A DNA stretch of 64,000 nt from contig SVIG01000002.1 in NCBI GenBank assembly GCA_015071005.1, positions 248,001 to 312,000 on the forward strand, given 5' to 3'. Position 1 is the stretch's first letter. Each line of letters begins with the position of its first letter. Made by a program: the position numbers and the translations under genes. This stretch comes from Clostridiales bacterium (GTDB lineage: Bacteria; Bacillota; Clostridia; Christensenellales; Borkfalkiaceae). The notes below the pieces were generated by a model, which did not search any database, was not told the DNA's origin, and saw only the letters and a program-made list of their open reading frames with translations. This document shows positions 11,251 to 12,349 of this stretch, in pieces.

Positions 11251-11571
11251 TTAGAGTAAATAGAAGGGCATTTCAGAGCCAAGTTCTACGCGTACAAAGC
11301 CTTCCTTCTTCGCAGGTTTTACAACTGCTTTCTTTGCAGGCGCTTTCTTTGCCGTAGATTTTGCAGCGGGCTTTTTCGCAGCCGTAGCCGTCTTTGCCTT
11401 CGGCGCCGCCTTTGCTTTCGCCGCCGTTTCTACGGGCGTAATAAGTTTTTCTACTACTTGAGGGTCGGGATTTGCAAGCACGTTACTGTTCTCCATGTCA
11501 GGTGCAGAAGTTTTTACCTTCGAATAACCGTTGTTTTCTACTCTTTTGATTGCATTTTTACCGATGGGCAT
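11251..11571 (-). CDS. Lys/Ala/Pro-rich small protein, candidate ParA partner/adaptor
   Basis: MPIGKNAIKRVENNGYSKVKTSAPDMENS...KAKAAPKAKTATAAKKPAAKSTAKKAPAKKAVVKPAKKEGFVRVELGSEMPFYLL; overlaps the ParA-type gene by 14 nt. Confidence 0.72.
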   Translation of the reverse strand: MPIGKNAIKRVENNGYSKVKTSAPDMENSNVLANPDPQVVEKLITPVETAAKAKAAPKAKTATAAKKPAAKSTAKKAPAKKAVVKPAKKEGFVRVELGSEMPFYLL

Positions 11572-12349
11572 AATCCATAATCTCCTTTGCAAGTTTTGTA
11601 TATTCGACCGCGCTGCGGCTCGATTTCTTGAATACAACGACGGGTTTGCTGTTGTCCTGCGACCATTCCACCGCGCTGTCTACGCGGATATAGTTCTCAA
11701 ACAAGCGCGCGTTTTCCATTTCTTTGAGCGTTTCCATCGTTTGCTTGAAATATTTTTTTCTCTCGTCCGCTTTCGTCACGGCGATCCCAAGAATTTCCAA
11801 TCTCGGCGCAATATTTTTCGCTTGGTTGACAAACTCAAACATATTCGCCAAGCCGAATAAACCCCAAGGGCTTGCTTCTATGGGAATCAACACGTAGTCG
11901 GACGCGCACATAATATTCATTACCCAACCGCCAAGCGTCGGGGGAGAGTCGATTAAGATATAATCGTAATACCCTTTCGCACGTACACGCTCCAAGCATT
12001 TTTTGAATACGGTTTCTCTTTGCCATTTCGCAAACAAATCAAATTCGATTGCACTCATAAGAGAGGTCGAGGGCACGATATCCAAGCCCTTGATGCCCGT
12101 TTCCACGATATAATCGGACAAATCCCTCTCGCCTACGATCGCGCGATAGATATTCTTATCCCCTTTCGCATACTCGTAAGCCTGCTCTTCATCGAAGAAG
12201 GAAATGGTGAGATTCAACTGCATATCCCCGTCGATCATCAGCACTTTTTTACCAGCCAACGCGAGCGCACAGCCCACGTTGGAGCAGGTCGTCGTCTTAC
12301 CGCTGCCACCTTTATTGTTCGCAAATGCGATTACGATTGTTTTGCTCAT
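11558..12349 (-). CDS. ParA/MinD-type P-loop ATPase
   Basis: MSKTIVIAFANNKGGSGKTTTCSNVGCALALAGKKVLMIDGD deviant Walker A; YDYILIDSPPTLGG. Confidence 0.9.
   Translation of the reverse strand: MSKTIVIAFANNKGGSGKTTTCSNVGCALALAGKKVLMIDGDMQLNLTISFFDEEQAYEYAKGDKNIYRAIVGERDLSDYIVETGIKGLDIVPSTSLMSAIEFDLFAKWQRETVFKKCLERVRAKGYYDYILIDSPPTLGGWVMNIMCASDYVLIPIEASPWGLFGLANMFEFVNQAKNIAPRLEILGIAVTKADERKKYFKQTMETLKEMENARLFENYIRVDSAVEWSQDNSKPVVVFKKSSRSAVEYTKLAKEIMDYAHR

What the first reader, a model, noticed from the sequence alone, without database searches (positions are those of the whole stretch)
11251..12349. ParA-type ATPase plus Lys/Ala/Pro-rich partner at the end of a glycyl-radical BMC operon: candidate microcompartment positioning pair
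The sequence shows a deviant-Walker-A ParA/MinD-type ATPase (KGGSGKT) overlapping by 14 nt a 106-aa protein. The small protein has a basic N-terminus (MPIGKNAIKRVENNGYSKVK), a histone-H1-like Lys/Ala/Pro tract and a short C-terminal block (FVRVELGSEMPFYLL). Both lie in the BMC operon just before its terminator, and there is no plasmid replication, flagellar or ParB gene nearby. Established: McdA (ParA-type) with the small adaptor McdB spaces carboxysomes on the nucleoid, and ParA partners often carry basic N-terminal residues that stimulate ATPase activity. Inference: an analogous but sequence-unrelated system may space this catabolic microcompartment. The basic tract could alternatively bind DNA directly, as in PhaM-like granule tethers.
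Basis: partly seen in the sequence, partly recalled or inferred. Interest (0 to 1): 0.88.

Follow-up and report, generated by a model that had tools for sequence, protein, structure and literature searches.

The report
ParA-plus-adaptor pair for microcompartment positioning
Next to the genes for a protein-shelled compartment that digests rhamnose or fucose, gut Clostridia keep a ParA motor-type ATPase and a small adaptor that very likely spread the compartments through the cell; in sister lineages the adaptor still contains the nucleotide-switch domain of the chromosome-partition protein ParB, which suggests the system was built from DNA-segregation parts.

Summary
In detail: a deviant-Walker ParA (12349-11558, minus strand) overlaps by 14 nt a 106-aa partner (11571-11251), followed by a real terminator, at the end of a GRM5 (rhamnose/propanediol) microcompartment operon. 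ParA orthologs form one clade, closest to chromosomal Soj rather than McdA. In the genus, ParA and shell genes co-occur (33 both, 22 neither; both exceptions lie at contig edges). In wider Clostridia 38 of 80 orthologs lie within 10 kb of shell genes, and 31 of 32 tested others have shell genes elsewhere in the genome. About 100 adjacent partners share an N-terminal M-x-[IV]-G-K-x-[SA]-[IL]-x-R motif and an invariant C-terminal [LMI]-P-x-[YHFW]-L-[LM] tag. The middle is either low-complexity K/A/P/T/E (the window) or, in 15 partners, a ParB N-terminal CTPase domain (Pfam, PDB sequence and fold matches). Best reading: a McdAB-like positioning pair, with the N-motif activating ParA and the C-tag binding the shell, evolved separately from ParAB. 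McdAB-like pairs at GRM loci were already predicted; the ParB-domain adaptors appear unreported. Positioning itself is untested.

The parts
11558..12349 (-). BMC-associated ParA ATPase (263 aa, KGGSGKT)
   Evidence: Pfam AAA_31; ortholog clade; AF2 pLDDT 91.6, nearest folds Soj/ParA
11251..11571 (-). small adaptor (106 aa), McdB-like in layout, 14-nt overlap with ParA
11536..11571 (-). conserved N-terminal motif MPIGKNAIKRVE, proposed ParA-binding element (resembles the ParB motif LG-K/R-GL)
   Evidence: G4 92/93, K5 82/93, S/A7 93/93, R/K10 93/93; PMC12704722; chromosomal ParB N-termini
11302..11424 (-). Lys/Ala/Pro low-complexity tract, variable in length and charge among orthologs
11254..11274 (-). 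C-terminal tag EMPFYLL, proposed shell-binding motif
   Evidence: P 93/93, aromatic or His 93/93, L 92/93
11188..11232 (-). intrinsic terminator after the pair
12364..12885 (-). EutP/PduV GTPase with Lys-rich tail ending LDTWLL
   Evidence: PF10662, tails; tail restricted to this genus and neighbours
12894..13259 (-). EutS-like BMC shell protein
13636..14421 (-). glycyl-radical enzyme activase
14649..17180 (-). glycyl-radical 1,2-propanediol dehydratase (closest solved structure 5i2a, 1201 bits)
17240..17785 (-). BMC-T shell protein (PduT-like)
17785..19104 (-). PduS/RnfC-like flavoprotein
19284..19535 (-). EutN/CcmL pentamer shell protein
19545..20210 (-). PduL phosphotransacylase
20406..21724 (-). 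four BMC-H shell genes (20406-20678, 20758-21030, 21095-21370, 21407-21724)
   Evidence: identified by sequence, orthologs
21936..31005 (-). operon enzymes: alcohol and aldehyde dehydrogenases, class II aldolase, acetate kinase, SGNH hydrolase, rhamnose isomerase, rhamnulokinase
   Evidence: assignment from sequence, no family search run on these

Best explanation
The pair is an ATP-driven positioning and partition system for the rhamnose/fucose (GRM5) microcompartment. ParA-ATP dimers bind the nucleoid non-specifically. The adaptor sits on the shell through its C-terminal P-x-[YFWH]-L-L tag and touches ParA through its basic N-terminal motif, which triggers ATP hydrolysis and ParA release; compartments then follow the ParA gradient and spread out (Brownian ratchet, as in McdAB and ParAB). 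The middle of the adaptor is a spacer or multivalency module: low-complexity in the window's lineage, a ParB N-terminal CTPase fold in others. The pair evolved from a ParAB-type ancestor independently of cyanobacterial and proteobacterial McdAB. Shown here: pairing, conservation, association with microcompartments, ParB homology of some adaptors, Soj-like ParA. Inferred: each binding step, the ratchet, and the direction of evolution.
For: Same-genus co-occurrence of ParA ortholog and EutN 33/1/1/22, Fisher p 1.5e-13, both exceptions at contig edges; other relatives 9/0/7/78, p 1e-8. 38 of 80 named-genome orthologs lie within 10 kb of shell genes; 31 of 32 other genomes carry shell genes elsewhere against 28% of class genomes having EutN. 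Partner directly follows ParA in 62 of 81 loci, with both end motifs nearly invariant over 93 distinct sequences. C-terminal aromatics with nearby acids are the published hallmark of GRM McdB-like proteins, and the carboxysome McdB C-terminal Trp is needed for shell association (PMC11321042); the first 20 residues of H. neapolitanus McdB bind McdA (PMC12204374). ParB_N domain in 15 partners, most above the Pfam cut-off in the searched set, with fold matches to ParB, PadC and Noc. Genomes of this genus without the microcompartment carry no such ParA, so it is not housekeeping.
Against: No localisation data. About half of the orthologs outside the genus are not beside shell genes. 19 of 80 wide-scan loci (mainly a Mediterraneibacter clade) have no tagged partner beside ParA, and none was found elsewhere in 17 of those genomes. 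One genome with the pair has no shell gene (G553, 1.7 Mb MAG). Salmonella Pdu compartments are not positioned by ParA, MinD or McdAB (PMC12866334), so not every microcompartment needs such a system. The shell target of the tag is unknown.
Confidence: 0.76

Rival explanations
1. The pair serves assembly or size control rather than positioning: ParA loads the adaptor or enzymes onto nascent shells, or limits aggregation, and spacing is a by-product.
For: Encoded with shell genes in the operon; low-complexity adaptors can form condensates, and McdB condensate formation tracks its carboxysome association (PMC11321042).
Against: ParA orthologs keep a full deviant Walker set and a Soj-like fold, and the adaptor's N-motif resembles known ParA-activating motifs. 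Many pairs are encoded far from shell genes, so they are not strictly assembly-coupled.
Confidence: 0.11
2. The Lys/Ala/Pro partner is a histone-like tether that holds microcompartments on DNA, PhaM-like, with ParA secondary.
For: Weak matches of some homologs to histone H1-like HC2; net positive charge, median +8.
Against: The tract varies from almost absent (57-aa partner L130) to neutral or slightly negative (L115, L106, L131) or is replaced by a ParB domain, while both ends stay fixed.
Confidence: 0.06
3. It is a DNA-partition or regulatory ParA that happens to lie in the operon (chromosome, plasmid or gene regulation through neighbouring AraC/DeoR genes).
For: ParA is closest to chromosomal Soj; in some lineages ParA sits beside DeoR or AraC regulators.
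Against: Separate clade from Soj; partners lack helix-turn-helix domains; presence tracks shell genes and is absent from shell-less genomes of the genus; sister genera have a separate Soj as well.
Confidence: 0.05

Closest known systems
McdA-McdB carboxysome positioning systems (alpha and beta types) and the putative McdAB-like pairs noted near PDU, EUT and GRM loci
   Same: ParA-type ATPase followed by a small adaptor with basic N-terminus, disordered biased middle, low hydrophobicity and C-terminal aromatic with acidic neighbours; microcompartment association.
   Different: ParA scores nearest to Soj/ParA (118-134 bits) and much lower to solved McdA (64 bits); the tag is P-x-Y-L-L, not Trp; some partners hold a ParB CTPase domain, whereas McdB is described as unrelated to ParB (PMC9178275). 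I could not see the published list of GRM McdB-like proteins, so overlap with it is likely but unchecked.
Chromosomal ParABS (Soj/Spo0J)
   Same: ParA fold and motifs; ParB_N domain with GhhxPhh and GxxRxxA boxes in most of 15 partners; N-terminal hGKxxI motif resembling LG-K/R-GL.
   Different: No helix-turn-helix, no ParB C-terminal dimerisation domain, C-terminal shell-type tag, association with shell genes, separate ParA clade.
PadC of Myxococcus (ParB-like CTP-binding adaptor that recruits ParA to bactofilin filaments)
   Same: ParB/Srx domain used to connect ParA with a protein structure instead of parS; fold match 6ryk, TM-score 0.52 by target length.
   Different: Different anchoring end and cargo; PadC acts in chromosome segregation.
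EutP/PduV GTPases
   Same: Encoded in the same operon and suggested to act in microcompartment positioning.
   Different: Unrelated GTPase; in this genus it bears a similar aromatic-Leu-Leu end (LDTWLL) that most other EutP proteins lack.

Membership tests
GRM5 microcompartment locus | glycyl-radical 1,2-propanediol dehydratase and activase | tested here: met
   (5i2a diol dehydratase, 1201 bits)
GRM5 microcompartment locus | class II aldolase, lactaldehyde reductase, PduS and PduT homologs, activase without ferredoxin insert (PMC6325248) | tested here: met
   aldolase and reductase assigned from sequence; PduS/RnfC-like and PduT-like; activase 261 aa with only radical-SAM/Fer4_12 hits
McdB-like adaptor | encoded directly after the ParA gene, basic N-terminus | tested here: met
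McdB-like adaptor | disordered, biased, low-hydrophobicity middle (PMC8262871) | tested here: met
   composition only: K/A/P/T/E/S 73% of the middle, mean hydropathy -0.77; disorder not measured
McdB-like adaptor | aromatic within last five residues with acidic residue nearby, Tyr/Phe in GRM types (PMC11321042) | tested here: met
   Y 76, F 6, W 3, H 8 of 93 at position -3; E/D at -7 in 71 of 93
McdB of carboxysomes | invariant C-terminal tryptophan | tested here: not met
   window ends MPFYLL; W in only 3 of 93
McdB-like adaptor | binds the shell and stimulates its ParA | not testable with these tools
   needs biochemistry and imaging
McdA | closest relationship to carboxysome McdA | tested here: not met
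   Soj/ParA chains rank above McdA by sequence (110 v 50 bits; 134 v 64) and by fold
Chromosomal Soj ParA | falls inside the Soj clade | tested here: not met
   all 105 BMC-type ParA separate from 7 class Soj-like ParA with 100 support, on long branches
ParB family (ParB-domain partners of sister loci) | ParB_N domain with Box I and II motifs | tested here: met
   PF02195 over cut-off in L035, L040, L102, L107, L120, L141, L093, L140, L184; below it in L036, L037, L041, L128; motifs; L037 and L041 lack the Arg; fold
ParB family (window partner) | ParB_N domain | tested here: not met
   no PF02195 match; only the two ends align with ParB-type partners
ParB family | central HTH and C-terminal dimerisation domain | tested here: not met
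   ParB-type partners are 138-207 aa, with only ParB_N found besides chance-level hits

The most novel reading that the evidence does not exclude
The microcompartment adaptors descend from ParB. A chromosome-partition ParAB pair was re-aimed at a protein organelle by replacing the parS-binding part with a short shell-binding tag. In the lineages that keep the ParB domain, CTP binding works as a switch on the shell surface, and the window's adaptor is a stripped-down form that kept only the ParA-activating and the shell-binding ends.
Probability: 0.4. Interest if true: 0.88.

Novelty: new variant of a known kind. Interest (0 to 1): 0.77.

Why it matters
How catabolic microcompartments are placed and inherited is open; McdAB-like systems were only predicted for them, and the well-studied Salmonella Pdu compartment does not use ParA. 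This family gives a defined gene pair with two short testable motifs in cultured gut bacteria (Blautia caecimuris, Blautia massiliensis, Murimonas intestini). The ParB-domain adaptors would link DNA segregation and organelle segregation by descent rather than analogy, and would add a possible CTP switch to organelle positioning.

Tried and rejected
The idea that the EutP C-terminal TWLL tail is a general shell tag was checked and dropped: it is confined to this genus and close neighbours. An orphan tagged partner for ParA genes without one was sought in 17 such wide-scan genomes plus G102 and G129; only ParB-like proteins without the tag were found, mostly of chromosomal ParB size. The claim that the genus wholly lacks ParB was dropped: 17 of 57 genomes have weak ParB_N hits, 3 above cut-off. 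Direct DNA tethering was set back by the variable charge and length of the tract. The class-wide sample gave only three orthologs (all with EutN), too few alone. The MacCready 2021 paper on alpha-McdAB is not held. The direction of change between ParB-type and low-complexity partners is not settled: the root lies on long branches and deep forks are weakly supported. AF2 of the ParB-type partner is modest overall (pLDDT 66, domain about 76-82).

Full report
OBSERVATION. The pair is as described. ParA runs 12349-11558 on the minus strand (263 aa from ATG) with N-N-K-G-G-S-G-K-T-T; the small gene 11571-11251 overlaps it by 14 nt and encodes 106 aa. A GC-rich hairpin with a T-run follows. Pfam and NCBIfam give AAA_31 for ParA with no equivalog over cut-off and nothing significant for the small protein in Pfam.

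THE OPERON. Upstream genes are those of a GRM5 locus: EutS-like, EutP, activase, glycyl-radical enzyme (best solved match 5i2a diol dehydratase, 1201 bits), PduT-like BMC-T, PduS/RnfC-like, EutN, PduL, four BMC-H, alcohol and aldehyde dehydrogenases, class II aldolase, acetate kinase, rhamnose isomerase and rhamnulokinase (several assigned from sequence). PMC6325248 lists aldolase, lactaldehyde reductase, PduS, PduT and an activase without ferredoxin insert as GRM5 marks; all fit. The published GRM5 description that I could read (PMC4207490) lists no ParA for GRM5.

CO-OCCURRENCE. In 151 related genomes there is a clear gap between ParA orthologs (56% identity or more) and all others (38% or less). 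Within the genus, ortholog and EutN occur together in 33 genomes and are both absent in 22; the two discordant genomes are contig-edge cases (G032: 1.7-kb contig starting inside ParA; G039: contig ends just after EutS). Fisher p 1.5e-13; outside the genus 9/0/7/78, p 1e-8. All same-genus loci examined have the partner right after ParA. In family f13 the ortholog lies away from the shell locus without a partner.

WIDER SEARCH. A scan of named genomes gave 80 orthologs at 62-75% identity, many in Lachnospiraceae. 38 lie within 10 kb of shell genes; of 32 genomes chosen from the rest, 31 carry shell genes elsewhere, against 111 of 394 class genomes with EutN (p 3e-15). Caveat: the baseline uses another shell family, and Lachnospiraceae may have a higher baseline than the class.

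THE PARTNER FAMILY. 62 of 81 loci have a directly downstream partner with the tag. Over 93 distinct sequences Pro at -5 is invariant, -3 is Y/H/F/W in all, -2 is Leu in 92, -7 is acidic in 71; at the N-terminus Gly4 92, Lys5 82, Ser/Ala7 93, Arg/Lys10 93. The loci were partly found by the tag pattern, but 119 of 120 window-type and 45 of 46 ParB-type database homologs, found without it, also keep the tag. The middle is of two kinds: low-complexity K/A/P/T/E (85 partners, 57-202 aa), or a ParB_N domain (15 partners, 138-207 aa).

PARB CONNECTION. ParB_N (PF02195) is above its gathering score in nine of thirteen ParB-type partners searched, up to 51 bits. Box motifs GhhxPhh and GxxRxxA are kept in most, though L037 and L041 lack the Arg. 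Sequence matches to solved ParB/Noc and a predicted fold matching ParB, PadC, Noc and sulfiredoxin agree. The N-motif hGKxxI resembles the ParA-binding motif LG-K/R-GL of ParB (PMC12704722) seen in chromosomal ParBs here. That large ParB-fold survey does not contain the words compartment, organelle or carboxysome in its main text, and a search for ParB + CTPase + microcompartment gave three papers, of which I opened one. PadC is a precedent for a ParB-like protein that brings ParA to a protein structure.

PARA. The model (pLDDT 91.6) matches Soj/ParA best, McdA lower, as do sequence profiles. The tree separates all 105 BMC-type ParA from Soj-like ones and shows ParB-type partners at basal and scattered positions, with five changes between partner types. 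Loss of the ParB domain, leaving both ends, is the simpler story, but the root is unsure.

MECHANISM. By analogy with McdAB, whose adaptor N-terminus binds McdA (PMC12204374) and whose C-terminal aromatic binds the carboxysome (PMC11321042), the N-motif should activate ParA and the tag should bind the shell. Both steps are inferred. Because the middle is variable in charge and length and can be replaced, it is more likely a spacer or multivalent element than the working part.

NOVELTY. New here, as far as the held literature shows: a defined family with two near-invariant ends across Clostridia, the ParB-domain adaptors, and the Soj-like origin of the ParA.

Noticed in passing
12364-12420 (-): EutP carries a Lys/Pro-rich tail ending LDTWLL, echoing the adaptor's FYLL end; the aromatic-Leu-Leu end is found in most same-genus loci, lost in several, and absent from other EutP proteins examined.
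   Followed up: yes
G000 and genus relatives: No Soj-like ParA at E<=1e-30 was found in this genus, while most other genera of the family have one; ParB_N hits are absent or weak, so chromosomal ParAB may be lost or very divergent.
   Followed up: partly
L045:12906-13382 (-), L046:6317-6793 (+): In a related family (f13) one BMC-H shell protein has a histone-like KKTAAKK N-terminal extension, and the ParA ortholog lies elsewhere in the genome without a partner.
   Followed up: partly
L165, L125 (Mediterraneibacter): The ParA ortholog has no tagged partner and sits before an AraC-like regulator followed by rhamnulokinase (and rhamnose isomerase in L165).
   Followed up: partly
13400-13640 (-): Two near-identical direct repeats of about 120 bp fill the gap between the activase and EutS genes.
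   Followed up: no
20406-20678 and 21095-21370 (-): Two almost identical BMC-H genes, suggesting recent duplication or gene conversion; relative L047 also holds a near-identical pair.
   Followed up: no
L009, L014: A lipoprotein-like gene is inserted between EutP and ParA in some relatives, and EutP there lacks the TWLL end.
   Followed up: no
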